A stretch of DNA of 46,283 bases, from contig NZ_JAAGOH010000034.1 of NCBI RefSeq assembly GCF_010499455.1, forward strand, positions 1 through 46,283, in the 5' to 3' direction. The notes beneath the pieces were generated by a model that worked only from the letters and a program-made list of their open reading frames with translations, searched no databases and had not been told where the DNA came from. A program made the position numbers and the translations under genes. This document shows, piece after piece, positions 11,141 to 23,937 of this stretch; within the stretch, counting starts at the first letter, position 1, and every line of letters begins with the position of its first letter. The stretch is from Ideonella livida (lineage in GTDB: Bacteria; Pseudomonadota; Gammaproteobacteria; Burkholderiales; Burkholderiaceae_C).

Positions 11141-11206
11141 AGCGCGGGCCAACGGCGGGCCAGCATGGTGCCCCCAGACCCCATCCGCCGCAAGGAGACC
11201 GGCCCC

Positions 11207-11731
11207 ATGAAGACCCTGACCCAGCAGCTCACCCAGTACGCGGCCTACCACCGCGACAGCCGCAACATCGCCACCCACTTCGTCGGCATTCCCATGATCG
11301 TGCTGGCCGTCTGCATCCTGCTCTCACGCCCGGGCGTCAACCTGGGCGCCATCCACGCCAGCCCGGCCCTGGCCGTGGCCCTGCCCTGCGCCTGGTACTA
11401 CCTGGCGCTGGACCGCACCCTCGGCCTGCTCATGGCCCTGCTGCTGGCCGCCGGCCTGCTGGTGGGCCAGACCTTGGCGCAGTGGCCCACGGCTGCTTGG
11501 CTCAGCTGGGGCCTGGGCAGCTTGGTGCTGGGCTGGGCCATCCAGTTTGTGGGCCACATCTTGGAAGGCCGCAAACCGGCCTTTGTCGACGACCTGATCG
11601 GTCTGCTCATCGGCCCGCTGTTCGTGCTGGCCGAAGCCCTGTTCGCCCTGGGCTGGCGCCCCGCGCTGCGCCAGGCCATTGAGGTGCAGGTGGGGCCGGT
11701 GCGGCACGGGCGCCGGGCGGCGCAGGCTTGA
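11207..11731 (+). CDS. Mpo1-like (DUF962) membrane protein
   Basis: A 174-residue inner-membrane protein of the DUF962/YGL010w (Mpo1) family. Its first conserved block is YAAYHRDSRNIATHFVGIPM, with histidines near 14 and 23. The second is QFVGHILEGRKPAFVDD near 115-131, ahead of the last membrane segment. Four to five hydrophobic segments fill the rest. Yeast Mpo1 is an iron-dependent dioxygenase acting on 2-hydroxy fatty acids, and the conserved histidines seen here are the likely metal ligands; the bacterial substrate is not established. I chose the ATG at 11207 because AAGGAG lies nine bases upstream. Its stop codon lies within an 18-bp palindrome that marks the edge of the low-GC defence island. 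Confidence 0.85.
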   Translation: MKTLTQQLTQYAAYHRDSRNIATHFVGIPMIVLAVCILLSRPGVNLGAIHASPALAVALPCAWYYLALDRTLGLLMALLLAAGLLVGQTLAQWPTAAWLSWGLGSLVLGWAIQFVGHILEGRKPAFVDDLIGLLIGPLFVLAEALFALGWRPALRQAIEVQVGPVRHGRRAAQA

Positions 11732-11746: not shown

Positions 11747-12508
11747 CTACTTCAGTAACCGCCTGCCAATCTCAAAGATCCCAGCCATGGGCATCGACTG
11801 CACCGGTCCCAGCACGGCGCCGGTGTCTTCTCGAAACCAGTTCAGTCCATCGGTCCGCACGGCCTTCAAGACCGGGCTGAAGTCGTATGCCGCTTGGCAC
11901 TTGAACCTTCCACCACCGCGGACGAGTCCAGCCATCGTGCTGTGGTTGCCTTTGTAGACCCAAACGATGGGCCACGGTTTCCAGGCAATGCCGACATGGT
12001 TCGAATCTTGGCGCCAGGTGCCCCAAGCGCGCTTTTCACCAATGTTCTGCAGCGACTTGAACAACCGCCACCGCTCCCACGGTGCAGGAAAGACGATGGC
12101 ATCGTTGAGATCCACAGACAAAGAGCGGGCTGCCTTCGTCGTCAGCGATTTGCGCGTCTCCCCTGCCGCATTGACGGGCAGGGCCTCGTCCCATAGCAAG
12201 GCACTGGCACTCCCGGCTGACTTATGGAACTGCCGGGCATCCATGACCAAATCTTCCAGGGCTCGCGCGCTGATGATTTGGGACAGCGCGATGGCAAGGC
12301 CCCGCAGTGCGTGGGTGCCATGTGCCTGCGCAGAGTCAATTGACCACAACAAGGACTCCCATTTCTGGGACTTCGTCAATCGCCGGCGCATCGGCAGCTT
12401 GGGATACGGCACCCGCTCTGGAGCGTCTTTGTTGTCCGGAAGCTGGCTATCCAGTCGCCGCAACACGTCCAGAAGCTCCTGATCAAACACGGGTTGACGT
12501 TCCGGCAA
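11747..12508 (-). CDS. Uncharacterised defence-island protein (possibly DUF6710)
   Basis: A 253-residue soluble protein and the last gene of the putative eight-gene operon. I do not recognise a catalytic motif. The middle is helical (LRGLAIALSQIISARALEDL). The C-terminal half has a distinctive aromatic block, FPAPWERWRLFKSLQNIG, then RQDSNHVGIAWKPWPIVWV and GNHSTMAGL. The combination of QDSNH and GNHS resembles DUF6710 as I recall it, but I cannot confirm this. The frame begins at a TTG (12508), 26 bases after the preceding gene, because an in-frame stop lies just upstream. Its position suggests an accessory or immunity-type role in the defence locus; that is inference. Confidence 0.6.
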   Translation of the reverse strand: MPERQPVFDQELLDVLRRLDSQLPDNKDAPERVPYPKLPMRRRLTKSQKWESLLWSIDSAQAHGTHALRGLAIALSQIISARALEDLVMDARQFHKSAGSASALLWDEALPVNAAGETRKSLTTKAARSLSVDLNDAIVFPAPWERWRLFKSLQNIGEKRAWGTWRQDSNHVGIAWKPWPIVWVYKGNHSTMAGLVRGGGRFKCQAAYDFSPVLKAVRTDGLNWFREDTGAVLGPVQSMPMAGIFEIGRRLLK

Positions 12509-12534
12509 GGTGACTCACAGTACAGGATTGGGGT

Positions 12535-13644
12535 CTACAGGTGGCTTGACACCGAGTCAGCCCACTTCGGAAACGCCTGCTTCAGGCGCTCCACGGTGTG
12601 GCGCCACTTGGGCGTTGTCGGCTGGCACACCGTGTTTTGGTTGCCGAACAGGCCCACTTCGTTGACGGCCTGGGTCTCCGGTACGGCATCGAGCCATTTC
12701 ACCCGGACAAAGTACTCGGCCCGATCCGGATCGTCGGCCGTCAGTTGGTACTTCTCGGCATGCTTGAGCGCCGTCAGGGCGGGTTGTTCGCCGTGATCGG
12801 TCAGCACCTTGAAGTCTTTCACCGGCTGGACCGACTCCAGCACCGTGCCCACGCCAACGTAGCCCTTCTTGGGAATCTTGACCCAGACCCGGTCCCCCGG
12901 CGAAAGGAGCTTCAAGGTCTGGCTGTACCAACTGCCGCCACCACCGCTGATGTAGCCAAACCGTCGGGCGTCCTCCCAACTGCGCGAGGTGGCGTCACCG
13001 AAGGACACATAAAACTCACCGTTCCAGGGTTCCTTGTCGCCTTTGACGGTGGCGGTGGCCACCATGTTGGCCTGGGTCTCGCCAGGATCAATGAGCCAAG
13101 CGCGGCTCAACAGCTTGTCGGCACCGTGCTCGAAGACTTGGAAGAAGAGGACGTTGATCGCGATGTCCCGGGCATTGAGGTAGCCAATGATCCGCTCGGT
13201 GGACGGGTCCAATTCAGCGGCCACGATGACGATCTGGTGCGACTGATTGAGGGTTTCTTCGTCCAACTCCACACCAAAGCGCGCCTGGAAGGCCGCATCC
13301 AGGCTCTTGCCACCCGAGAACCGCTGGTAGATCTGCGCCACCCGCTCCGGCGTCAACTGTTCAACCCACGAGGCGTAGTCCAGAGCCTGGGCGACGATTT
13401 CACGCGGTGTGCGGTCGCGCTTCAGCTCGATGAGCACCAAGGAGGCATCTGGCGCAATTGCCAGCAGGTCGATACGGCCACCGTAGGACGTGACTTCTTG
13501 GCGCCCGATCAGCATCCACTCGCTGGACAAGATGCGCGGATCCCGCACGATCATGTCTTCGAGTTGCTGCTCGCTGGCCAGGTGGCTGGAGACGAGTGGC
13601 GCCGGCTGTTCGCCGACCTTCCAGATGGCGTGGTGGATGGGCAT
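12535..13644 (-). CDS. PD-(D/E)XK nuclease domain protein (NucS/DUF91-like)
   Basis: The 369-residue protein has an N-terminal nuclease core of the restriction-endonuclease fold, of the kind found in NucS/DUF91 proteins. Visible are LEDMIVRDPRIL, then GGRIDLLAIAPD with the metal-binding Asp (about residues 55-66), then LVLIELKRDRTPRE with the E-x-K pair (about 69-82) and a helix with QALDYASWV. The second half is beta-rich (GDRVWVKIPKKGYVGVGTV) and may be an OB- or PUA-like nucleic-acid-binding part. It sits 16 bases after the HNH gene in the putative operon. The catalytic residues look intact, so it is probably active on DNA. Whether it serves the type I system, the ATPase-HNH pair or its own system is open. 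Confidence 0.8.
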   Translation of the reverse strand: MPIHHAIWKVGEQPAPLVSSHLASEQQLEDMIVRDPRILSSEWMLIGRQEVTSYGGRIDLLAIAPDASLVLIELKRDRTPREIVAQALDYASWVEQLTPERVAQIYQRFSGGKSLDAAFQARFGVELDEETLNQSHQIVIVAAELDPSTERIIGYLNARDIAINVLFFQVFEHGADKLLSRAWLIDPGETQANMVATATVKGDKEPWNGEFYVSFGDATSRSWEDARRFGYISGGGGSWYSQTLKLLSPGDRVWVKIPKKGYVGVGTVLESVQPVKDFKVLTDHGEQPALTALKHAEKYQLTADDPDRAEYFVRVKWLDAVPETQAVNEVGLFGNQNTVCQPTTPKWRHTVERLKQAFPKWADSVSSHL

Positions 13645-13660
13645 AGAGGGACAGTCAGGT

Positions 13661-14512
13661 CTAGGCGATCAGGCGTTGCAGTGCTGGTTGATTGCTGAAT
13701 CGGATACACCATTTCGCAACGGCCGAGAGTTCGGATTCCGGCTTGGTGAGGGAAGTAATTTCGCAGGCCACGGCCTTGACTTCCTGCCTTGCCGCCGCCG
13801 ACGTCGTTGTCTTCGCGAGTGCTTTCTGATACTTGTCGAGCAGCTTGGCCGTCTTCTGCCAGACCTTCCTGCGCTCCTCGGCGAGGGCCTGATGCTCGGT
13901 CAATTTCAGCCGCTCCACGGTTCGCCTCACGCGTACAGCGTCCCATCGCGATACGCCAGGTGCCGGCACTGCTTTGCCTTCTTCGTCGAAAGCCAAAAGC
14001 GTCACGTCATGCGCGTTGGTCGGGTCGAGAAAGTGCGGGACTTCGTCGCCCTCGCAAGGTCTCGCGTAGCTAGAACAGGGCGAGCCACGGCGCAAAGGAA
14101 ACCAAGCGCCCTTCTTCCGGTTCGGGACCGTCCCGGCGATCCGAAAGTTCATGTAATCAAACGCAAGCCACCAGTACCCGTCACGCTCTGGGCCGTGTGC
14201 ATTTCGAGCCACTTTCTTTGGGCGGAAGTGCTCCACATCCAGGTGCGAGGCGATGTCCTTTGCCTCAGTAAACCAGCACTTGCCGCCCGACAGTGCCAGC
14301 AACCACGGCTTGAGCTTGCCCCAGTGGGCGCTGTTCTTGTCGATGAACTCGTTGCGCTCCTTGACCTTCCTCGCAGCATCGAGTTTGGCAAGTTCACCAA
14401 CCAGCCTTTCGGACTCAGCTAGCCAGGCGCTCCAATCAGCCTTCGTCCAACGAACGTCGGCAGGCAAGTCCGCGTCCGTCGGCAATTTGTTATCCAAGTC
14501 GATGAAGATCAT
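13661..14512 (-). CDS. HNH endonuclease, Septu PtuB-like
   Basis: The 283-residue protein resembles the HNH partner of Septu and retron-Ec78 ATPases (PtuB, TIGR02646-type). The core is visible: GKCWFTEAKDIASH (77-90), the catalytic VEHFRPKK (93-100), GYWWLAFDYMNFRIAG with N122 and PNRKKGAWFPL with N131. This gives an H-N-N arrangement. It is odd in that the usual zinc-binding CxxC pairs are reduced: C79 has no partner at +3, and PNRKKG replaces the cysteine-containing knuckle. A helical C-terminus follows. The start overlaps the ATPase stop by four bases, so the two are coupled, as in ptuAB. Nicking or cleaving phage or host DNA on ATPase release is the known PtuB role; here it is inferred. 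Confidence 0.75.
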   Translation of the reverse strand: MIFIDLDNKLPTDADLPADVRWTKADWSAWLAESERLVGELAKLDAARKVKERNEFIDKNSAHWGKLKPWLLALSGGKCWFTEAKDIASHLDVEHFRPKKVARNAHGPERDGYWWLAFDYMNFRIAGTVPNRKKGAWFPLRRGSPCSSYARPCEGDEVPHFLDPTNAHDVTLLAFDEEGKAVPAPGVSRWDAVRVRRTVERLKLTEHQALAEERRKVWQKTAKLLDKYQKALAKTTTSAAARQEVKAVACEITSLTKPESELSAVAKWCIRFSNQPALQRLIA

Positions 14513-16293
14513 GCGCGGCCCTCCTCCCGCAAGATTTCTTCGATGATCTCGTCGGCAATGCGGTTTTGCTCCGCTTGCTCTTCCGGTGAGAGTGACGGCC
14601 TCCTGAACCTGCGGTGCTGGGCCATCTTGCGCACGAACAGCGCGTAGTCCGGGTCGCGGAAATCCGCCGTCGAGAAGCCCAAGTCCGCCAGCTCGGCCGA
14701 TAGGCGGGTCAGCTCAGCCTCTTCGTCGGCGGTACGGGGTTGCTTGACGAACAGTTCGTTGCGTCGGAACAGGCGGCGCTCGGTTTCTGCATCCAGCGTG
14801 GAAGTCAGGCCGAACAGTTCGCTCTTGAGCAAACCGGTGACGCCCATGCCTTGCGGGTGCTCGTCGGGCACGTCCACGACGGTACTGCGGCCCTGTCGGC
14901 GCAGGATGTGAACCTGCTCGCGCTTCAGGCTGCCCACCATCATGGGGTCGTGGGTGGTAATCAGAATCTGGGACTGTCCGGCTGTTTCGAAATAGCCATC
15001 TTCGACATAGCCCTGTGCGGCATAGCCGTCTGAATCACCCAGCACGCCCTCGATGTCATCAAAGTAACGCAGCTTCCAGATCGGGTTCAGGTGCGTGTCC
15101 GGCTCGTCGAGCAGGAACAGGCAATGGTTGTCGCGGGTGATGCGCATCAGGCCCAGCACGGTGAGCATTTGCAGCTCGCCTTCGGACAACTGCGTGAAGC
15201 TCACCGCACCACCGTGTTCGTCACGCTTCTTGACGGTGATGCGCACTTCTTCGATCAAGTCGCCGATGTAGGCGCCCTCGGCATAGCGGAAGAAGCTGTC
15301 GGTGCCGCCCACCAGCTCGCCCAGTTCCCGCAGCTTGGCGTGGCTGGGCACATACAAATAGAGCTGTTTTTGCTTCTCCGTGCGGCCCCGGAAGTCGATC
15401 TGCTGCGTGGTTTCTTGCTCGATGGGCGCCCAGGCCACTTGCCAGAGCTTGTCGAGGAACTCGCTCACCACATTGCCCCGTGCGTACCAGAAGCGTGGGT
15501 CGCCCTCGTTCAGCTCGTTTTCGTCGAAGCGGCCGCCCCGGCGTTTTTCGCGCAGCCGGTGCGGCTCTTTCAGCACGAACAGGGCGGATTCCAACGACTC
15601 GATGTGCAGGTTCTTGAGCACCTTCTGGAAGACCGGGTCGTCGGACAGCAAGCAGGCCAAGAGCACCAATTGGCTGTGGCCGCCACGGCAGTAGAACAGC
15701 CGGCGCAGGCGGTCATCGCCCGCTTGCTTAAGTCGGGCCTCGCGGCGGCGGCGCACCTCATCCAATGCGCGTATGTCGGCATCGCTGGCCGAGAACTGGT
15801 TTAGCAATTGCTCGGGCAGCACCTCGTCAGTGGTGATTTCCTGACGCAGATTGAAGCGGCGCTGGTGCTCTTGGAATAAGGCTTCGATGCGCTCGTTGCG
15901 GCCCGAGTAATAGGCAAAGATGTGCGAGGGCAGCAGCTCCCGGTTTTTCAGCAGGTAGCCCTGTGACTCGGCCTTGCCGTCCACCCACACATAGGGCCGT
16001 TTCTGCTTGGCGGTGACGGCTTGCAGCTTGACGGTGTGGCCGCGTATGTCGTACGCCAGCGTGTAGTCCAGTGCGGCGTCGCGATCCAGATCGACATCGC
16101 GGAAGATGGTGATCAGCGCCTCGATCAGGTTGGATTTGCCCACACCGTTCTGGCCGATCAGCGCATGGCTGCGGATGGCTTTGGGAACCGCTGCTGGGGC
16201 GGCTCGGGGAGCGGGTTCCAACTGGGTCGCGAAGTCGATCACCACGCCGCGCAGGTTGCGGAACTGCGGAATGCTCAGGTGCCGCAACTGCAT
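14509..16293 (-). CDS. ABC/SMC-type AAA ATPase, Septu PtuA-like
   Basis: The 594-residue ATPase is of the SMC/ABC class used by Septu, retron-Ec78 and OLD-like defence systems. Walker A is IGQNGVGKSNLIEAL (GQNGVGKS at 47-54), preceded by the typical N-terminus LRHLSIPQFRNLRG. The signature TQLSEGELQML lies near 366, Walker B CLFLLDEPDTHLNP near 390 and the H-loop TTHDP near 446. The middle is helical with an exposed charged region. I see no Toprim nuclease at the C-terminus, so catalysis on DNA should come from the HNH protein encoded next, which overlaps by four bases. It starts two bases after the hsdS stop and is therefore almost certainly co-transcribed with the type I genes. Confidence 0.85.
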   Translation of the reverse strand: MQLRHLSIPQFRNLRGVVIDFATQLEPAPRAAPAAVPKAIRSHALIGQNGVGKSNLIEALITIFRDVDLDRDAALDYTLAYDIRGHTVKLQAVTAKQKRPYVWVDGKAESQGYLLKNRELLPSHIFAYYSGRNERIEALFQEHQRRFNLRQEITTDEVLPEQLLNQFSASDADIRALDEVRRRREARLKQAGDDRLRRLFYCRGGHSQLVLLACLLSDDPVFQKVLKNLHIESLESALFVLKEPHRLREKRRGGRFDENELNEGDPRFWYARGNVVSEFLDKLWQVAWAPIEQETTQQIDFRGRTEKQKQLYLYVPSHAKLRELGELVGGTDSFFRYAEGAYIGDLIEEVRITVKKRDEHGGAVSFTQLSEGELQMLTVLGLMRITRDNHCLFLLDEPDTHLNPIWKLRYFDDIEGVLGDSDGYAAQGYVEDGYFETAGQSQILITTHDPMMVGSLKREQVHILRRQGRSTVVDVPDEHPQGMGVTGLLKSELFGLTSTLDAETERRLFRRNELFVKQPRTADEEAELTRLSAELADLGFSTADFRDPDYALFVRKMAQHRRFRRPSLSPEEQAEQNRIADEIIEEILREEGRA

Positions 16294-16295
16294 GG

Positions 16296-18317
16296 TCAGG
16301 CCTTGGCGGGTTCGGCGGTGGGTTTCTCGCGCACCTGCGCCGGCTCGGGTTCGGCAATCCAGCCGTGCGTCACCTCGGTTTTGAGCTGGGCGTAGAAGGC
16401 GTCGATCTCGCCGCCGAAGCGTTGCCAGAGGTCGCGGGCGGCCATCTCACCTTGGTGGCGGGCCAGGATGGTGGCCAGCGGTGCCTGGGCTTTCACATCG
16501 GGCGGTGTGGCCAAGCGCAGCAACGAGACAAGTTCGGTTTGGGGGGCTTTCATGGCGGTGTCTTCGGCTTGTTCGATGTTGATGCCGGTGAGGGCGGCAA
16601 CGGTTGAGCTTGCAAGGCTCGCAGCAACGCGCAACCCGGTAGTCAGGTGACGCGCATGCTGATCGCACAGCGCAAACAAGCGATCAATGACTTGAACGAT
16701 TCGATCCTGCTCATCACGGGGCGGCACAGGGACAACGAGGTCTTCAACCCCCCCCACCCGGAGGTGCTTGACGGTCATGCCGATCGCTGCCTCTGACATC
16801 CTCGTCTGGAAGCTGGGGCTTTGAATCACGTAGAGCAAGTAGCGATTGCTGAACAACTCGTTGAACAAGCGAATCAGCATCGTGCGCTGCCCGAGACAAA
16901 CCCGTTCACCATCGGGAACGATTGCGGCCTCCCCCATTGGCGCTTCCCGCGTAAAGAAGATGTCGCCTGCCCGGGGTTGCATGCGTCTTGCCCAATACGC
17001 ATAGGTCTCTTCAGAAATCTTTCGAGTCTTCGTTAGCTCCATTCGCCCGTCGCGGATGTCGGTGGTGCGAATAAGGTGAATGCCTTCATTGACGTACGGT
17101 GCTGTCTTGTTATGGCAGTCCACAACAGCTTGCGAAACCTGAAGCAACGAGGCCCAGCGCCAATGCTCGGGCAATACTTCGCTTGGTGCTGCGGCCTGCT
17201 GGGTTCTCAGCTTTTTAAGCATCCCAACGGCTTCCTTTTTTTCCTGCCCTTCAGCGGTTTTTGCCCACTTCGACCGGGCTTCCGCGATCTGGTCAAGCAG
17301 CGTTGACGCAGGGGTTGGCGTCCGTGTGGATGGCAACAAGCGCCCATTCACAGCAAGGTCGAGGACTAGCCCCCTGAAGTCGCGTACGTCCTGCGGCTCG
17401 CTGAATAGCTGCCCGAAGTTCGCTTGCAGCCTTTCCCACCCCATCCGCAACTCATGCGAGCTTTGTGCGGTGGCCAAGGCTTGCAAGGTGGACTGCCTCA
17501 GGGCGTTCTGTAGCTTGCGGCGGTCTTGCTGCTGCTTCTCCAACTGATCGCACAAGGCCATCAGTTCATCGACTTTGGCGACGATGCGGGATTGCTCTTC
17601 GGATGGAGGCAACGGAAAAGCCCGCGTTGCGAAGTAGTCCGTTGGCACACGCTTTTGACCCGCAGTACCGGTCATGTTTTTCTCGCCCTCCACCATGAAA
17701 AGCGGCGAGCGCAGAAATAGGTAGACGTATGCGGACAAAACGCCAGGGTGAATGGGGCGGAACACCTGGAGTTCGGTGGTGCCCGCGCCAATACCTGCAT
17801 CTCCCGGCAGGCCCTCCACGGCGGCGGCTTTGCCGTTTTCAAAGCAGGGCGTGATCTTGGCCAGCACCACGTCGCCGTTTGCGAAATGGGTGTAGCCCTT
17901 CTTGATGTCGCCCCAGCGCTTGGTCTCGGCAATGATGGCTGCGCGGTGAAATTGAGGCACCCCGCTCATGGGAACAAAGGCTGCTAGTTGCTCGTCCGGC
18001 GCATCATTGCGCGGATTGATCTCACCGATGTCAAGTAGGCGTGTCCATCGCCAAGCCGCCGGCAACGAAATGCCTTGAGGCGGGCAGACGGGCTCACTTT
18101 CAAGTTCAACCATCCGCTTGTATTGCTTGGCCCGGATCAGCCGCTGTCGTTGTGCACCGATATGCGCCAGCAAAAGGCCGGCATCTTCCCTAGATTCACC
18201 ACGCGGGGTCAGCGAACCCGTGACGGCCAGCTGGTAAATCATTTGCCGCAAGTGGGCGATACCTCCCGGCGCCTTAGCAACATGCCCAAACTCCGCCAAA
18301 AACTGCTTCGCATCCAT
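16296..18317 (-). CDS. hsdS: Type I restriction-modification specificity subunit with C-terminal extension
   Basis: The 673-residue HsdS selects the bipartite target of the type I enzyme. It has two target-recognition domains, opening at LPAAWRWTRLLDIGEIN (about residues 85-101) and LPEHWRWASLLQVSQ (near 390). Each is followed by a conserved helix (DELMALCDQLEKQQQDRRKL and DRLFALCDQH). An N-terminal helical piece (LRQMIYQLAVTGSLTP) is repeated in the middle as VLDLAVNGRLLP. Unusually, about 90 residues after the second repeat form an extra domain (MKAPQTELVSLLRL, LARHQGEMAARDLWQ, FYAQLKTEVTHGW) that looks like a winged helix. GGAGG upstream supports the ATG at 18317, which overlaps the DUF1016-like stop. 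With HsdM it would methylate, and with HsdR cleave. Confidence 0.92.
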   Translation of the reverse strand: MDAKQFLAEFGHVAKAPGGIAHLRQMIYQLAVTGSLTPRGESREDAGLLLAHIGAQRQRLIRAKQYKRMVELESEPVCPPQGISLPAAWRWTRLLDIGEINPRNDAPDEQLAAFVPMSGVPQFHRAAIIAETKRWGDIKKGYTHFANGDVVLAKITPCFENGKAAAVEGLPGDAGIGAGTTELQVFRPIHPGVLSAYVYLFLRSPLFMVEGEKNMTGTAGQKRVPTDYFATRAFPLPPSEEQSRIVAKVDELMALCDQLEKQQQDRRKLQNALRQSTLQALATAQSSHELRMGWERLQANFGQLFSEPQDVRDFRGLVLDLAVNGRLLPSTRTPTPASTLLDQIAEARSKWAKTAEGQEKKEAVGMLKKLRTQQAAAPSEVLPEHWRWASLLQVSQAVVDCHNKTAPYVNEGIHLIRTTDIRDGRMELTKTRKISEETYAYWARRMQPRAGDIFFTREAPMGEAAIVPDGERVCLGQRTMLIRLFNELFSNRYLLYVIQSPSFQTRMSEAAIGMTVKHLRVGGVEDLVVPVPPRDEQDRIVQVIDRLFALCDQHARHLTTGLRVAASLASSTVAALTGINIEQAEDTAMKAPQTELVSLLRLATPPDVKAQAPLATILARHQGEMAARDLWQRFGGEIDAFYAQLKTEVTHGWIAEPEPAQVREKPTAEPAKA

Positions 18318-18595
18318 CAGTTATCCTCCCCACGGTTTTCCAGCCGCGCCCGCGAATTGGCAATGGCCTCCTGCAACTTGGCCTGCAAAACTTCCTTGGA
18401 TGGCAAAACCGTAAGATATTCGGCAACGTGAATGCCGCTGCACAAATTGGTGCCCAATTGTCTCGGCAGCGCGGAGACGATCCGTTCGCAGTAGCCGGTA
18501 CGCTGGCCATGGAGCATGACAGTGCGGCTGCGCTCGATGAGTTGGCGGATGTCGCCCAACAGTTGGGGCGTGGGTTCCAGCGATGCGCCACTCAT
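18317..18595 (-). CDS. Miniature DUF1016 (YhcG-like) protein, internally deleted
   Basis: Only 92 residues, but both ends resemble the much longer DUF1016/YhcG nuclease family. The N-terminus PTPQLLGDIRQLIERSRT and GYCERIVSALPRQLG match the opening helices. The C-terminus VAEYLTVLPSKEVLQAKLQE matches the family's extreme end. The middle, including the PD-(D/E)XK catalytic region, is missing, with only a short junction (TNLCSGIH) between. The start overlaps the hsdM stop (ATGA) and the stop overlaps the hsdS start (TGATG), so the reading frame is kept in the operon. It could be a deletion remnant kept for translational coupling, or a mini-protein that modulates DUF1016 or HsdM/S. It is not catalytic as it stands. 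Confidence 0.65.
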   Translation of the reverse strand: MSGASLEPTPQLLGDIRQLIERSRTVMLHGQRTGYCERIVSALPRQLGTNLCSGIHVAEYLTVLPSKEVLQAKLQEAIANSRARLENRGEDN

Positions 18596-20511
18596 GCCTG
18601 CGCATCCTCGCTGCTGAAGTGGTGCGCCAGCGCGGCCGCCAGCTCGCTCTTCAAGCGGTTCTCGGTCTCCTCGATCTGACCCAGCAAGGCCTTGTACTTG
18701 TCCAACAGCACATCGGGGTCGTGGCTTTCTTCCTCGGGCGCGTTCGGGTTCTTCAAATCCAGGTTGAAGATCGGCCAGTAGAGGCGATCCCCGGCGGCCT
18801 GGGCATCGCGGGCTTGCAGGTCTAACGAGTCCGCTTGGGCGCGCAACTGCTCGACGGTACGAGTGAGACTGATGATGGTCGCCTCCGTACTGCCGCTGTT
18901 CAGCGCTGAGCGCAGTGCCTCGACTAGCACGAGGGTGTAGTCGCGCTGACCTGCGTGAGCCGCGTGAAGGTCTGACTGCAAATCTTCCACCTGCTCTTGG
19001 AGTGTGTTCACAAGGCTCTCGTCCTTCCGGCGGCCGACGAGGGAGTCGCTCAAGTATTTGGCTTGCCGACGGCAGACGGCTGCCTGATTTCTGATGTCTT
19101 CGGCCCGCGCCCAATGCGGTGTCGCCTGGCTTTGCGCCTGCTCGCGCTTGCTCTTGAAATCCACCTTCCAGGCGAACTCGTTTTCCACCCGATCGGCAAA
19201 GTCGTTGGCCTCATTGCCCCACCACGCGATCTCGGGCTGGAACTCCTCAACGCGGATGGGTTTGGTCTTGCTGTAGCTCTTGTAGCCCGGCGGGTAGGGG
19301 TGCTCGTAGTACCAGATGGTGTCGGTGTGGAAGTGCTCGGTGCCGTCGTCCACCTGGGCACCCTTGGTGAAGAACAGCAGGTTGGTCTTGATGGTGGTGT
19401 ACGGGGCGAACACGCCCTTGGGCAGGCGCACGATGGTGTGCAGCTTGCAGTCGCGCAACAGCAACTGTTTGAGCGTGCCCTTGATGCCGTCGCCAAACAA
19501 AAAACCGTCGGGCAACACCACAGCGGCGCGGCCGTTCTCCTTCAACAGCTTCTTGACGATCAGCGCCATGAACATGTCGGCGGTTTCGCGGGTGCGCAGG
19601 TCAGCGGGGTAGTCGCTGCCCACGCCGTCATCCTCGTAGCCGCCAAAGGGCGGGTTGGTGATGACGCAGTCCACCTTGTCGTTGGCGCTCCAGTCGTTCC
19701 AGCCGATGCCCAGGGTGTTACGGTGCACGATCTGGCTGGGCACGTCGATGCCATGCAACAGCATGTTGGTGGTGCACAGCAAGTGCGGCAGTTGCTTCTT
19801 CTCGATGCCGTGAATCAGCTCCGCAATGGCCGCCTTGTCTGCGGGGCTGGACTTGTCGGTGAGCTGGTGACGCAGGTGCTCGATGGCCGCCGTCAAGAAG
19901 CCACCCGTGCCGCAGGCAGGGTCCATCACCGTCTCGCGCTTGGCCAAGCTGGGGTTCAGCCGGTCCGCCATGAACTGGGTGATGGCACGCGGGGTGTAGA
20001 ACTCGCCTGCATTGCCGGCGCCCCGCAGGTCGTTCAGCAATTGCTCGTAGACATCGCCCAGGTTGGCGCGAATCGTGAAGTCGTGGAAGTTGATGGCCTC
20101 TTCCAGCTTCTCAATCACGGCCAGCAGCTGGGTGCCGGACTTCATGTAGTTGTTGGCGTCCTCAAAGACGCTACGGATCACCTGATGCAGCGGGCTGTCC
20201 GATGCGTCCAGCTCCTTCAAAGCCGGGAAGAGCTGATTGTTGACAAAGCCAATGATCTCTGAGGGGGTCTTCTGAGGAGCTTTCTTGCCGTCAAGGCCCG
20301 CCACAAACGCCGCCCAGTTGCGCCAACGCAGCCCTTCATCCAGAGGCGATTGGTACGAAGCGTCGTCGTCTTCCCACTCCTCTTCGCGCTGGTCGAAGAC
20401 TTTCAGGAACAGCATCCAAGTGAGCTGACCCAGGCGCTGGGCGTCGCCATCGACACCATCGTCTTTGCGCATGATGTCTTGGATGGATTTGATGGTACTG
20501 CTGAGGTTCAT
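18592..20511 (-). CDS. hsdM: Type I restriction-modification N6-adenine methyltransferase subunit
   Basis: The 639-residue HsdM has the N-terminal helical domain (QRLGQLTWMLFLKVFDQREE) and a gamma-class N6-adenine methyltransferase domain. Motif I is VMDPACGTGGFLTAAIE (near 193-205) and motif IV CVITNPPFGG (near 281-290), with the GEFYTPRAI lead-in. The C-terminal part has an unusual helical insert (about residues 465-575, rich in Glu, Gln, Arg and Ala) before the GDRLYWPIFNLDLKNPN block. This insert is predicted to form a coiled coil and could be a docking surface. hsdR lies 35 bases upstream and the mini-DUF1016 gene overlaps the stop. The enzyme protects host DNA by methylating the HsdS target. 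Confidence 0.95.
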   Translation of the reverse strand: MNLSSTIKSIQDIMRKDDGVDGDAQRLGQLTWMLFLKVFDQREEEWEDDDASYQSPLDEGLRWRNWAAFVAGLDGKKAPQKTPSEIIGFVNNQLFPALKELDASDSPLHQVIRSVFEDANNYMKSGTQLLAVIEKLEEAINFHDFTIRANLGDVYEQLLNDLRGAGNAGEFYTPRAITQFMADRLNPSLAKRETVMDPACGTGGFLTAAIEHLRHQLTDKSSPADKAAIAELIHGIEKKQLPHLLCTTNMLLHGIDVPSQIVHRNTLGIGWNDWSANDKVDCVITNPPFGGYEDDGVGSDYPADLRTRETADMFMALIVKKLLKENGRAAVVLPDGFLFGDGIKGTLKQLLLRDCKLHTIVRLPKGVFAPYTTIKTNLLFFTKGAQVDDGTEHFHTDTIWYYEHPYPPGYKSYSKTKPIRVEEFQPEIAWWGNEANDFADRVENEFAWKVDFKSKREQAQSQATPHWARAEDIRNQAAVCRRQAKYLSDSLVGRRKDESLVNTLQEQVEDLQSDLHAAHAGQRDYTLVLVEALRSALNSGSTEATIISLTRTVEQLRAQADSLDLQARDAQAAGDRLYWPIFNLDLKNPNAPEEESHDPDVLLDKYKALLGQIEETENRLKSELAAALAHHFSSEDAQA

Positions 20512-20546
20512 TTCGTTGTTCTCGTTTCAGGCGGCCCGCCAGTGGG

Positions 20547-22979
20547 TCAGGCCTGCTTCTTGTTGTTCTCTTCGTCGTAGAGCGCTTGTTCCAATGCCCG
20601 CACGGCCTGGGTGAACTGTTCAACGCCGCCGAAGATGCCGCGCCGAATCTGTGTCTTGCTGCCGAACTGGTCGAAGGGCGGCAGTTCCAGCACCTTGGCG
20701 TCTTCCATGTTTTGCACGCCGTGGTCGGCAAACTTGTCGAGCAAGGCCTCCAGCACCGCACGGGCCTGGTCACCGTACTGGCCGAACACGTTGCGTTTTT
20801 TGACGTTGTTGGCGCGCTCGCGCCGGGTCAGCGGTTTCTGGTCGAAGGCCACATGGGCCACCAGATCGAACACATCCAGCTCGGCACCGTTGGGCACCGC
20901 TTGCTGCAGCACCTCCAGCGGCACGCCGTGGTCTGCCAGCTCGTCCAACACCGCTTGCTTGCGTTCAGCGCTGTTCCACCGGCGCAAGAAGTCGGTCAGG
21001 CTGCCGAACTCGGCCTGCAAGGCCTGCTTGATGTCGTCCTTGAGCAGAACGCGGTAGTCCTCGGTGATGAGCTTGCCATCTGCATCCAGGTACTGCGAGC
21101 GCTCGACAGCGACGCGCACGTTCACGTCGTCAATGACGTACTTGGTGCGGCCTTCGCCCCCGGCACCGACGGTGGTGATGTCGGGCGGTTGACCTGTCGT
21201 ACCTGGCTGGGTGGGGCCAGGGTACGGAGGGTCCGGCTCACCTGTGCCCGGTGGCACATCGGGTGGCACCACGGGTTCGTCTTCTTGGGGCTCATAAATC
21301 ACCACCGGCTCGCCGTCGAAGTCTGGGTCGGCAAACAGGCGGGTTGCGCCCTTGAAGTCCATGATGGTGAAGTACAGCTTCTGGTAATCCTCGCGCAGGC
21401 GCGTGCAGCGCCCGATGATCTGCTTGAACTCGGTCATCGAGTTGATGTTTTGGTCCAGCACGATCAGCTTGCAGGTCTTGGCGTCCACTCCGGTGGTCAG
21501 CAGCTTGGAGGTGGTCGCAATCACGGGATAGGCCTCGTCGTTGTCAATGAAGTACGACAACTGCGCCTTGCCCTCGTGGTCATCGCCGGTGATGCGCATC
21601 ACGTAACGGCGGTTACTGGCAGCGGCAGGAATGATCTTGACCAGTTCTTGGCGCATGCGCTCGGCATGGTCTTGGTCGTCGCAAAACACGATGGTCTTGG
21701 CCATCGGATCGGTGACTTTGAGGTACTCCCACACCTTACGTGCCACCAAGCGGGTGCGTTTCTCCAGCACCAGATGGCGGTCGAAATCCTTGGTGGTGTA
21801 GAGCCGCTGTTCGACGGCCTGACCAAGCTTGTCCACCTTGCCCTTCTCCGGCATGTAGCCCACGGCATCCACGTCCGTGGCGATGCGGATCACCTTGTAG
21901 GGCGCAAGGAAACCATCCTCAATGCCCTGCTTCAGCGAGTAGGTGTAAACCGGGTCGCCAAAGTAAGTGAGGTTGCTCACCTCTTTGGTTTCTTTGGGTG
22001 TGGCCGTCAGACCCAGGTGCGTGGCGGCGCTGAAGTAGTCCAGCACATCGCGCCAAGCTGAATCATCGGCGGCGCTGCCGCGATGACATTCGTCGATCAC
22101 CACCAGATCGAAAAAGTCCGCCGGGAATTGCCGGTAGATCTGCTTCCAATCCTCGCGCCCGGTGACGGCTTGGTACAGCGCCAGGTAGATCTCGTAGTTC
22201 TTCTTGACCTCGCGGTTGCTGACTTTGTGCATCACCTCGCCGAACGGGGCGAAGTCCTGCTGCATCGTCTGATCGACCAGGATGTTGCGATCTGCCAAGA
22301 ACAAGATGCGCTTCTTGGCCTTGGCTTTCCAAAGGCGCCAGATGATCTGGAAGGCGGTGTAAGTCTTGCCCGTGCCGGTGGCCATGACCAGCAACACGCG
22401 CTGCTGCCCCTTGGCGATGGCCTCCATGGCGCGGTTGATGGCCACACGCTGGTAGTAGCGCGGTTCCCGGCCGCTGCCATCCGTGTAGAACGGCTGTTCC
22501 ACCAGCGCCACGGCGGCAGGCGTGCTCAGCCCCTTCCATTGCTGGAACAGCGCCCAGAGTTCGGCGTGTGTCGGGAAGGCATCCAGGGAAACTTCACGCT
22601 CGGTCGGCGAGGTCAGCCCGGTGCGGTCGTGTAGCAGGAATGCCGTGCCGTTGCTGCTGATGGCAAAAGGCGCATCCAGCATCTCGGCATATGCCAGCGC
22701 TTGCTGCATGCCATGACCCACCGGAAACTTGGCTTGCTTGGCTTCAACCACGGCCAGCGGAACATTCGGGCGGGCGTAGAGAACGTAGTCAGCGCGCTTG
22801 GGCCCCCCCTTGGCTTCAGGATTACGAACCCGGGAAGCCAACTTGCCGCGCACCATGACACGGCCGTCCGTGAGGCGCACTTCCTCACGAAACTGTGTCT
22901 GCTGCCAACCAGCGGCCTGTATCGCGGGCGTGATGAACTTGGTACAGATGTCCCGTTCACTCAGCTCGTACTTGTCCAC
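20547..22979 (-). CDS. hsdR: Type I restriction enzyme, motor/nuclease subunit
   Basis: The 810-residue HsdR cuts unmethylated DNA after ATP-driven translocation. The N-terminal nuclease is complete: RADYVLYARPNVPLAVVEAK supplies the Asp and E-x-K (about residues 59-78), with QQALAYAEML behind it. The SF2 motor has Walker A MATGTGKTYTAF (near 198), DECH in VVIDECHRGS (near 294), GLTATP, and motif VI QIIGRCTRLRED (near 522). A Pro-rich linker near 575-605 separates the motor from the C-terminal helical domain. I chose the GTG at 22979 because AGGGAGAA lies seven bases upstream; the open frame to 23084 has no family similarity. It is the first gene of the putative operon. A 21-bp dyad at 23030-23050 may be its operator. 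Confidence 0.95.
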   Translation of the reverse strand: MDKYELSERDICTKFITPAIQAAGWQQTQFREEVRLTDGRVMVRGKLASRVRNPEAKGGPKRADYVLYARPNVPLAVVEAKQAKFPVGHGMQQALAYAEMLDAPFAISSNGTAFLLHDRTGLTSPTEREVSLDAFPTHAELWALFQQWKGLSTPAAVALVEQPFYTDGSGREPRYYQRVAINRAMEAIAKGQQRVLLVMATGTGKTYTAFQIIWRLWKAKAKKRILFLADRNILVDQTMQQDFAPFGEVMHKVSNREVKKNYEIYLALYQAVTGREDWKQIYRQFPADFFDLVVIDECHRGSAADDSAWRDVLDYFSAATHLGLTATPKETKEVSNLTYFGDPVYTYSLKQGIEDGFLAPYKVIRIATDVDAVGYMPEKGKVDKLGQAVEQRLYTTKDFDRHLVLEKRTRLVARKVWEYLKVTDPMAKTIVFCDDQDHAERMRQELVKIIPAAASNRRYVMRITGDDHEGKAQLSYFIDNDEAYPVIATTSKLLTTGVDAKTCKLIVLDQNINSMTEFKQIIGRCTRLREDYQKLYFTIMDFKGATRLFADPDFDGEPVVIYEPQEDEPVVPPDVPPGTGEPDPPYPGPTQPGTTGQPPDITTVGAGGEGRTKYVIDDVNVRVAVERSQYLDADGKLITEDYRVLLKDDIKQALQAEFGSLTDFLRRWNSAERKQAVLDELADHGVPLEVLQQAVPNGAELDVFDLVAHVAFDQKPLTRRERANNVKKRNVFGQYGDQARAVLEALLDKFADHGVQNMEDAKVLELPPFDQFGSKTQIRRGIFGGVEQFTQAVRALEQALYDEENNKKQA

Positions 22980-23412: not shown

Positions 23413-23937
23413 CTAGAACGGAATGTCGTCATCCATGTCGTCGAAGCTGGTGCTCGACTTGGGGGCGGGGCGCGGGGCGGGGGCCGGCGCCGGGCGGGCC
23501 ATGGGGGCCGGGCGCGCGGCGCGGGGGGCCGGGGCGGGTGCGGGCTCACCACCACCCATGTCGTCTTCGTAGCCGCCGCCACCACCGCCAGCGCCGCCGC
23601 CGTCACGGCCGCCCAGCAGTTGCATCTGCTCGGCCACGATTTCGGTGGTGTAGCGGTCGTTGCCGTCCTTGTCCTGCCACTTGCGGGTCTTCAGGCGGCC
23701 CTCGATGTAGACCGGGCGGCCCTTGCGCAGGTACTCGCCGGCCACTTCGGCCAGGCGGTCATAGAGCACGACGGAGTGCCACTCGGTTTCCTCCACGCGC
23801 TCGCCGCTGTCACGGCTCTTCCAGTTGCGGGTGGTGGCCAGGCGCAGGTTGCACACCGCCGAGCCGCTGGGGGTGTAGCGGGTCTCGGGGTCGCGCCCCA
23901 GGTTGCCGATGAGGATGACTTTGTTGATGCTGGCCAT
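23413..23937 (-). CDS. ssb: Single-stranded DNA-binding protein
   Basis: The 174-residue SSB protects single-stranded DNA in replication, repair and recombination. The N-terminal OB fold is standard: [20 protein letters not shown], then [33 protein letters not shown] and [12 protein letters not shown] (residues 1-110). A flexible Gly-rich then Pro/Ala-rich linker follows, with the conserved acidic tip DDMDDDIPF that docks partner proteins such as RecQ, whose gene lies in this window. The ATG at 23937 has GGAG seven bases upstream. It ends at a strong terminator that separates it from the defence island; ssb is thus the first conserved gene on the right flank. Confidence 0.96.

What the first reader, a model, noticed from the sequence alone, without database searches (positions are those of the whole stretch)
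11747..22979. Eight-gene composite defence operon: type I RM + ATPase-HNH pair + extra nuclease
hsdR, hsdM, a mini-DUF1016, hsdS, an SMC-type ATPase, an HNH nuclease, a PD-(D/E)XK nuclease and an unknown protein follow each other on one strand with gaps of at most 35 bases and several 4-base overlaps. Type I RM and Septu-like PtuAB are each known. Tight coupling of both, plus a third nuclease and a protein of unknown function, suggests a layered system in which ATPase-HNH might act when RM fails or is inhibited. The joint function is inference.
Basis: partly seen in the sequence, partly recalled or inferred. Interest (0 to 1): 0.8.

Follow-up and report, generated by a model that had tools for sequence, protein, structure and literature searches.

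The report
Restriction system carrying a Septu effector
A bacterial DNA-restriction operon carries, directly behind its targeting subunit, a second two-protein nuclease of the Septu kind; the same arrangement recurs in many distant bacteria, so the two look like parts of one coupled antiviral machine and not neighbours by chance.

Summary
The eight genes exist as described: one strand, gaps of at most 35 bases. They are not one eight-gene system. The unit that recurs is hsdR-hsdM-hsdS-ptuA-ptuB: in 66 loci with a close PtuA, HsdS lies upstream in 64 of 64 with room, HsdM 56 of 56, at least part of HsdR 54 of 54, and PtuB is present in 65 of 65. The ATPase and HNH protein are PtuA/PtuB relatives. 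HsdS here ends in an extra conserved, winged-helix-like tail. Nine of nine diverged PtuAB-linked HsdS carry a related tail; 0 of 15 HsdS from operons without PtuA do. Some loci keep hsdM-hsdS-ptuA-ptuB without intact hsdR nearby. I propose that the tail couples PtuAB to HsdM-HsdS, PtuAB being a dedicated effector that works much as PrrC does with EcoprrI. The 'mini-DUF1016' is a nuclease remnant with its core deleted. The NucS-like nuclease is a type I accessory that sometimes follows PtuB. DUF6710 is a rare addition. Two tail-bearing HsdS without PtuA in view are the main counter-evidence. Function is inferred; no experiment was run. My literature searches found no description of the linkage.

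The parts
20547..22979 (-). hsdR, 810 aa, EcoAI-family restriction subunit; nuclease (D64, E79, K81) and Walker motifs as in relatives; one odd residue, GRCTR where 44 of 45 aligned sequences have GRGTR
   Evidence: NF046051 1117.5 bits, cut-off 550; motif columns in 45 aligned sequences
18592..20511 (-). hsdM, 639 aa, N6-adenine methyltransferase subunit; NPPF and DPACGTGGFL motifs intact
   Evidence: PF02384 212.9 bits; motif columns in 50 aligned sequences
18317..18595 (-). mini-DUF1016 (92 aa): remnant of a ~349-aa DUF1016 (PDC-S02) protein with two in-frame internal deletions; nuclease core lost
   Evidence: residues from 53 on are 67-89% identical to the C-terminus, and the first ~47 residues match the N-terminus, of full-length proteins in the same slot
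16296..18317 (-). hsdS, 673 aa, specificity subunit with C-terminal tail
   Evidence: PDLC03096 842.9 bits; Methylase_S
16323..16553 (-). HsdS C-terminal winged-helix-like tail (77 codons), proposed coupling element to PtuA
   Evidence: holds the most conserved 25-residue block of HsdS, 0.90; found within 700 nt of ptuA in 62 of 64 relatives; model core pLDDT 80-86; controls
14509..16293 (-). ptuA, 594 aa ABC-type ATPase; ATP-binding motif residues intact
   Evidence: PDLC00293 669.9 bits; profile matches solved PtuA chains; invariant residues G47-S54, S370-E373, D396, E397, H448
13661..14512 (-). ptuB, 283 aa HNH-type nuclease
   Evidence: PDLC00343 342.5 bits; profile and fold match solved PtuB; H95, N122, N131 invariant in 60 of 60 aligned; that these are the HNH residues is inferred
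12535..13644 (-). NucS-like PD-(D/E)XK nuclease (PDC-S11), 369 aa, variable accessory
   Evidence: PDLC04916 543.3 bits, NucS_C 26.1 bits with cut-off 24; in L186-L188 it follows hsdS with no ptuAB
11747..12508 (-). DUF6710 protein, 253 aa, function unknown, rare addition
   Evidence: PF20457 123.6 bits; 3 of 329 genomes, own included

Best explanation
The core is a type I RM system of EcoAI type with a built-in Septu effector. HsdM and HsdS recognise and methylate the host's target sites, and HsdR cuts unmodified DNA. HsdS carries an extra C-terminal winged-helix-like tail that I infer docks PtuA, holding the PtuA-PtuB complex on, or under the control of, the HsdM-HsdS complex. When that complex meets unmodified foreign DNA, or is blocked by a phage anti-restriction protein, PtuB is freed. 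It then cleaves an essential nucleic acid (tRNA, as in Septu EcB88 and retron-Eco7, or DNA, as reported for another Septu), stopping phage growth, probably at the cost of the cell. This works like PrrC with EcoprrI, with another kind of nuclease. The NucS-like and DUF6710 genes are extra cargo at the distal end. Shown here: gene order, recurrence, family identity, conservation and homology of the tail and its absence in controls, HsdR-free variants. Inferred: docking, trigger, substrate, outcome.
For: Recurrence: HsdS 64/64, HsdM 56/56, at least part of HsdR 54/54, PtuB 65/65 of close loci with room; record titles include Proteobacteria, desulfobacteria and Planctomycetes. The hsdS-ptuA gap is 1-2 bases in 42 of 64 and within -1 to 26 in 61 of 64; ptuA and ptuB overlap by 4 bases in 47 of 51 scored. 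Reach: 6 of 6 viral-contig PtuA loci lie beside HsdS, two being the same sequence; 5 of 5 plasmid loci fetched, of 15 matching records. Of 398 genomes 10 matched a PtuA profile; of the 9 besides the own, 6 have HsdS directly upstream. Tail: highest block conservation in HsdS, 0.90. The close and diverged tail groups are homologous (hhalign probability 95.2, E 2.7e-8). Leave-one-out test: 9 of 9 diverged PtuAB-linked HsdS score probability 93.6-98.8, 0 of 15 HsdS without PtuA exceed 1.5, and 0 of 7 HsdS beside AAA proteins without PtuB exceed 1.1. In E. coli tail and ptuA are in the same 3 of 5,426 genomes. HsdR-first survey: 11 of 12 HsdS seen have neither tail nor PtuA. No hsdR within reach: L076-L079, L098, L157, L158 and an hsdR fragment in E. 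coli. Logic from passages of PMC2610378, PMC3874165, PMC3506569, PMC13096335, PMC11555353.
Against: No binding, transcript or phage data. Two HsdS have the close-type tail without PtuA in view: L084 (PtuAB absent, Hachiman HamA and a helicase next door) and L126 (contig ends after hsdS). The tail tracks PtuA (Spearman 0.74) no better than it tracks the conserved parts of HsdS (0.76), and bootstrap intervals for its excess over HsdR, HsdM and the HsdS recognition regions all reach zero. The N-terminal and central conserved regions of HsdS are nearly as conserved as the tail (up to 0.78 and 0.82). Against A1 alone single diverged tails score weakly (probability 0.3-86). The excess of broken hsdR (7 of 52) over hsdM (2 of 54) is not significant (p 0.09). 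The tail's PDB match is weak (best E 0.91). The retron-Eco4 PtuAB is said not to target tRNA (PMC11555353), so the substrate may differ.
Confidence: 0.5

Rival explanations
1. PtuAB is a second restriction arm: HsdM-HsdS marks unmodified sites and PtuAB, recruited by the HsdS tail, cuts that DNA, replacing or supplementing HsdR. No guard or suicide logic is needed.
For: hsdM, hsdS, ptuA and ptuB together with no hsdR within reach (L076-L079, L098, L157, L158) and with only an hsdR fragment (E. coli L075/L206/L207). Septu of ATCC 25922 was reported to target DNA (passage in PMC11555353).
Against: 45 of 52 close relatives keep an uninterrupted HsdR, which would be partly redundant. Two characterised PtuAB systems cleave tRNA-Tyr.
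Confidence: 0.25
2. Two independent defence systems, type I RM and Septu, merely share an operon and promoter inside a mobile defence cargo, with no mechanical link.
For: The locus is a low-GC island; EcoAI-type operons without PtuAB are common (11 of 12), and accessories vary freely.
Against: Same order in every close relative with room, near-zero gaps, and a tail on HsdS that goes with PtuAB across different RM backbones.
Confidence: 0.13
3. The HsdS tail has nothing to do with PtuA; it is a lineage feature of this HsdS subfamily (for example DNA or DUF1016 binding) that travels with the operon.
For: L084 keeps the tail and a 349-aa ORF in the DUF1016 slot but has no PtuAB; the tail correlates as well with conserved HsdS regions as with PtuA.
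Against: Related tails on 9 of 9 PtuAB-linked HsdS of other backbones (HsdS profile E 1e-41 to 1e-66), in loci without a DUF1016 hit.
Confidence: 0.12

Closest known systems
Septu (PtuA-PtuB)
   Same: ABC-type ATPase followed by HNH nuclease with 4-base overlap; PADLOC PtuA1/PtuB1 models at 669.9 and 342.5 bits; nearest solved chains are PtuA and PtuB
   Different: PtuA is 594 aa, against 465 in 8ee4 and 550 in retron PtuA chains; behind a tail-bearing HsdS; far below the NCBIfam cut-offs for the retron Ec78 PtuA and PtuB equivalogs
PrrC-EcoprrI (type IC RM with latent anticodon nuclease)
   Same: Nuclease with an ABC-type ATPase part, encoded inside a type I RM operon; guard or effector logic (PMC2610378, PMC3874165, passages)
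   Different: PrrC is one protein with another nuclease type and is tied to type IC; here two proteins, HNH, EcoAI-like RM, with an HsdS tail
Retron I-A / Retron-Septu (Eco7, Ec78)
   Same: PtuAB used as the effector of another module
   Different: No reverse transcriptase among the eight genes; the sensor would be HsdM-HsdS
Methylation-associated defence system (MADS)
   Same: Methyltransferase, HsdS and AAA ATPase (by the NCBIfam model names); HsdM, HsdS and PtuA give sub-cut-off hits to MAD2, MAD5 and MAD3
   Different: 92.3, 26 and 22.4 bits against cut-offs of 720, 400 and 420; PtuB and a classical HsdR present
TIGR04435 restriction system-associated AAA family ATPase
   Same: AAA ATPase placed after HsdS in a type I operon, as annotated in L080
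   Different: Window PtuA scores 111.3 bits, cut-off 300; in L080 the partner is not PtuB by my profile and HsdS has no related tail
DarTG2 embedded in a type I RM (RptR island of EPEC)
   Same: Known example of a toxin module inside a type I RM operon (PMC12255303, passages)
   Different: Different toxin, placed between hsdS and hsdR, with a repressor gene

Membership tests
Septu | PtuA-type ABC ATPase with intact ATP-binding motifs | tested here: met
   PADLOC 669.9 bits; motif residues invariant; best PDB profile hits are PtuA chains
Septu | PtuB HNH nuclease encoded next to ptuA | tested here: met
   342.5 bits; conserved H95/N122/N131; the nine best Foldseek hits are PtuB (E 4.8e-5 to 4.3e-3, TM 0.35-0.48, so a distant match)
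Septu | Anti-phage activity, cleavage of tRNA or DNA | not testable with these tools
   needs experiment
Type I RM (EcoAI-like) | HsdR, HsdM, HsdS present with catalytic motifs | tested here: met
   NF046051 1117.5 bits, cut-off 550; one unusual residue in GRCTR
Type I RM (EcoAI-like) | Sequence-specific methylation and cleavage | not testable with these tools
   needs methylome and restriction assay
PrrC-type RM guard | PrrC protein present | tested here: not met
   the ATPase matches PtuA; no PrrC family in the Pfam and NCBIfam lists or among the 25 of 93 PADLOC hits shown
PrrC-type RM guard | Toxin silenced by the RM complex and released by its inhibition | not testable with these tools
   a claim of 'works like', not of membership
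Retron I-A (Septu type II) | Reverse transcriptase gene before ptuA | tested here: not met
   no reverse transcriptase domain in the Pfam hits of the eight proteins; hsdS precedes ptuA
MADS | MAD2, MAD3 and MAD5 above curated cut-offs | tested here: not met
   all far below
TIGR04435 restriction-associated AAA | Score above curated cut-off | tested here: not met
   111.3 of 300 bits
DUF1016 (PDC-S02) nuclease | Nuclease core present | tested here: not met
   central ~236 residues deleted, N- and C-terminal pieces remain; that this stretch is the nuclease core is recalled

The most novel reading that the evidence does not exclude
HsdM-HsdS with a tail is a general, methylation-aware sensor platform, and PtuAB is its plug-in effector. 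HsdR is optional: in its absence hsdM, hsdS, ptuA and ptuB form a new class of restriction-like system in which a Septu nuclease, not HsdR, carries out the response to unmodified DNA.
Probability: 0.3. Interest if true: 0.82.

Novelty: new variant of a known kind. Interest (0 to 1): 0.62.

Why it matters
Makarova et al. 2012 (PMC3506569, passages read) proposed that immunity systems hold suicide effectors in check and named PrrC with its RM system as the one well-studied case of such cooperation. A second, independent, widespread case with a small, deletable candidate adaptor (the 77-aa HsdS tail) would make that hypothesis directly testable. It would also give a reason why PtuAB genes sit behind type I specificity subunits, and would mean that tools which report 'RM' and 'Septu' separately may split one system in two.

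Tried and rejected
One conserved eight-gene system: rejected, because DUF6710 is in 0 of 66 relatives and the NucS-like gene follows PtuB in 4 of 66 (L030 a 15% fragment, L046, L047, L069; a 33% opposite-strand hit in L021 was not counted).

Mini-DUF1016 as a new small nuclease: rejected, the core is deleted.

Clean insertion site between ssb and the Mpo1-like gene: not shown. In 8 of 15 congener loci of the Mpo1-like gene a Crp-like neighbour is found, but in none is ssb in view by the flank test, whose ssb query was in a wrong frame. The ssb-centred loci show neither the Mpo1-like gene nor hsd genes outside the own genome.

Tail-PtuA co-evolution as proof: rejected as proof, (searches gave similar but unadjusted correlations). 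Residues after a motif mixed the two HsdS halves and are not used. Broken hsdR as proof: not significant; interruptions may be sequencing errors, and the HsdS integrity count is unreliable because recognition regions diverge.

Other searches: DUF6710 in viral contigs, no relative. PtuA in phage records, no match. Tail in plasmids: close type none, L078 type 2 of 72,556 records, both PtuA-linked and one the query's own, L159 type none. Single-sequence PDB searches, none for PtuA or PtuB. A search for MADS listed only unrelated Mad3 papers.

Limits of counts: the 66 loci were chosen by similarity to the window PtuA. HsdR, HsdM and HsdS counts accept any tblastn hit, fragments included, where room was over 6000, 3500 and 300 bases. 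The alignment used 56 of 64 HsdS (8 short ones dropped). In one search only 3 candidates per genome were scored, and the profile was built from RM-linked PtuA. Of 17 genomes, 15 others plus a second locus of the own genome were fetched (G710 was not); HsdS was seen in 12 of the 16 regions. Of 15 plasmid records 5 were fetched. 'No hsdR' means none in the stretch held; L078 starts at the origin of a circular record with 1.1 kb before hsdM, so hsdR could lie across it, or elsewhere in any genome.
Full report
OBSERVATION. Eight minus-strand ORFs run from 22979 down to 11747. Junctions: hsdR/hsdM 35 bases, hsdM/mini-DUF1016 4-base overlap, mini/hsdS 1-base overlap, hsdS/ptuA 2 bases, ptuA/ptuB 4-base overlap, ptuB/NucS-like 16, NucS-like/DUF6710 26. 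GC is 0.58-0.63 in the bins inside the operon against 0.66-0.77 outside, boundary bins apart. ARAGORN finds no tRNA in the window. Promoter and terminator scans give nothing beyond chance.

IDENTITY. HsdR belongs to the EcoAI family (NF046051, 1117.5 bits against a cut-off of 550). Its nuclease and Walker motifs match its relatives; in one helicase motif it has GRCTR where 44 of 45 have GRGTR. HsdM and HsdS are clear. The ATPase and HNH protein hit PADLOC PtuA1 and PtuB1 at 669.9 and 342.5 bits. Single-sequence PDB searches found nothing, but alignment profiles find Septu and retron PtuA first (9vh1, 8ee4 and others, E from 1.2e-10) and PtuB (9l7p, 9kjx, 8ee7 and others, E from 1.4e-6). An AlphaFold2 model of PtuB (pLDDT 86) has solved PtuB chains as its nine best Foldseek hits (E 4.8e-5 to 4.3e-3, TM 0.35-0.48). 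NCBIfam's curated cut-offs for the retron PtuA/PtuB equivalogs are not met.

RECURRENCE. A scan of one genome per species with the PtuA protein gave 66 loci. By tblastn, HsdS lies upstream of ptuA in 64 of 64 loci with room, HsdM in 56 of 56, at least part of HsdR in 54 of 54, and PtuB is present in 65 of 65 (gene orders). The hsdS-ptuA gap is 1-2 bases in 42 of 64, between -1 and 26 in 61 of 64, and 344-1620 in three; ptuA and ptuB overlap by 4 in 47 of 51 loci where the PtuB match starts at residue 1 (15 others not scored). PtuB comes in two kinds, 47-82% and 29-35% identical to the window's, behind related PtuA. A DNA search with ptuA matches 3 of 5,426 E. coli genomes. Viral contigs gave 6 loci, all next to HsdS (L160 and L161 the same sequence). 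Plasmids: 15 records matched; the 5 fetched all have HsdS directly upstream. Phage records: none. In 398 phylum-wide genomes, 10 matched a PtuA profile, own included. Of the other 9, HsdS is directly upstream in 6 (L098-L102 and L104, ptuA split in L099 and L100), one gene away in 1 (L106), has no room in 1 (L103), and is absent in 1 (L105).

THE HsdS TAIL. In an alignment of 56 HsdS, the block at window residues 626-650 is the most conserved of all (0.90) and its neighbours 576-625 reach 0.75-0.78. The N-terminal and central conserved regions reach 0.78 and 0.82, and the recognition regions mostly lie at 0.25-0.50. The tail's AlphaFold2 model is strand-helix-strand-helix-helix, core pLDDT 80-86. 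Foldseek hits are weak (best E 0.91) and include methionine aminopeptidase and BigR/ArsR entries; that these hold winged-helix parts is recalled, not tested. The tail is found within 700 nt of ptuA in 62 of 64 loci; the two misses, L059 and L065, have another ORF between, and their HsdS rows show the tail.

CONTROLS FOR THE TAIL. Diverged PtuAB-linked HsdS (L076-L079, L098, L099, L158-L160) share a tail: with each sequence and its near twin left out, 9 of 9 match the others' profile at probability 93.6-98.8. Of 15 HsdS from operons without PtuA none exceeds 1.5, and of 7 HsdS beside AAA proteins lacking PtuB none exceeds 1.1. The close and diverged tail groups match at probability 95.2, E 2.7e-8, against 0.18 for the control group; single diverged tails against the close group alone score 0.3-86. 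In the HsdR-first survey 11 of 12 HsdS seen have neither tail nor PtuA; the twelfth, L126, has the tail but its contig ends there. The window genome's own second EcoAI-type operon (L131) has neither. In E. coli, tail and ptuA fall in the same 3 genomes. In 398 genomes the close tail is strong in two, own and L084 (a third hit is partial, E 0.004). L084 is the counter-example: tail and a 349-aa ORF in the DUF1016 slot, no PtuAB, a Hachiman HamA and a helicase beside it. Distances of the tail follow PtuA (Spearman 0.74 in 35 loci) but equally the conserved HsdS parts (0.76), so this is not proof of contact.

HsdR IS DISPENSABLE NEARBY. No HsdR hit in any ORF of at least 60 aa in L076, L077, L078, L079 (plasmids), L098, L099 (ptuA split), L157 and L158, which do hold hsdM, hsdS, ptuA and ptuB; the same profile finds diverged HsdR at E 1e-30 to 1e-49 in other loci. 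L078 has only 1.1 kb before hsdM. In all 3 E. coli genomes hsdR is annotated as a C-terminal fragment while M, S, A and B are full length; their near-identical surroundings suggest one event. Among close relatives hsdR is interrupted in 7 of 52, hsdM in 2 of 54, ptuA in 2 of 66, ptuB in 2 of 64; the excess is not significant. So HsdR is probably not what keeps PtuAB harmless, and PtuAB is kept where HsdR is lost.

THE OTHER THREE GENES. The 92-aa mini-DUF1016 aligns to both ends of DUF1016 proteins in the hsdM-hsdS slot, with two in-frame gaps; the centre is gone. A DUF1016 match is in that slot in 21 of 66 relatives (a 28% hit in L068 not counted), 17 of them clean ORFs of 345-365 aa. The NucS-like gene is PDC-S11: 18 of 329 genomes match at E 1e-20, 5 strongly (E 1e-157 or better), own included. 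Of the other four strong ones, three have it directly behind hsdS with no PtuAB (L186-L188); in the fourth (L189) it is not in such an operon. It follows PtuB in L046, L047 and L069, and as a fragment in L030. DUF6710 occurs in 3 of 329 genomes, own included; of the other two, one (L184) lies beside a type I RM operon and one (L185) does not.

MECHANISM. PrrC is kept latent by EcoprrI and turned on by T4 Stp (PMC2610378, PMC3874165, PMC12707154, passages). PtuAB of retron-Eco7 and Septu EcB88 cleaves tRNA-Tyr, another Septu is reported to cut DNA, and retron-Eco4 is said probably not to target tRNA (PMC11555353, PMC13096335, passages). Retrons already use PtuAB as an effector. By analogy I infer that HsdM-HsdS, through the tail, controls PtuAB here. 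Guard (release on inhibition) and direct effector (action on unmodified DNA) cannot be told apart by sequence; HsdR-free loci favour direct control by HsdM/HsdS.

NOVELTY. Searches for Septu with type I restriction, PrrC with Septu, 'restriction system-associated AAA', Septu with HsdS, and RM accessory genes gave listings, and the passages I read show no description of PtuAB as a type I RM partner. The PADLOC paper's passages mention Septu type II (retron) and the Hma operon found near Septu (PMC8565338). The library lacks most subscription papers and preprints, so this is not proof of novelty. The name of NCBI's TIGR04435 shows that a related association was noticed in annotation. Hence: new variant of a known kind.

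Noticed in passing
own genome G000:C40:5275-12253 (L131): A second EcoAI-type hsdR-hsdM-hsdS operon (HsdR 61% identical to the first), without HsdS tail and without PtuAB.
   Followed up: partly
L084 (G352:C12): Tail-bearing HsdS with a 349-aa ORF in the DUF1016 slot but no PtuAB; Hachiman HamA and a helicase lie beyond hsdS on the other strand.
   Followed up: partly
L049, L050, L055, L056, downstream of ptuB: A 451-aa ORF of unknown identity follows ptuB within 6-21 bases in Vibrio and Pseudoalteromonas loci; possibly another accessory.
   Followed up: no
L059, L061, L065: Larger gaps (344-1620 bases) between hsdS and ptuA, with extra ORFs of 190 and 489 aa in L059 and L065.
   Followed up: no
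L159, L160: A different gene order, hsdR-hsdS-ptuA-ptuB-hsdM, in viral contigs; also hsdS-ptuA-ptuB-hsdM in L076, L077 and L158.
   Followed up: partly
L101, L102, L104, L162, L080: hsdR-hsdM-hsdS followed by a more diverged AAA ATPase and a partner of about 340-390 aa that is not PtuB by profile, with no related HsdS tail: perhaps a second family of RM-linked ATPase pairs.
   Followed up: partly
window 20547-22979, HsdR residue 525: GRCTR in place of the GRGTR seen in 44 of 45 aligned HsdR; effect unknown.
   Followed up: no
window 23413-23937 and 11165-11731: The island lies between ssb and an Mpo1-like gene; in the congener loci examined these two are not seen next to each other.
   Followed up: partly
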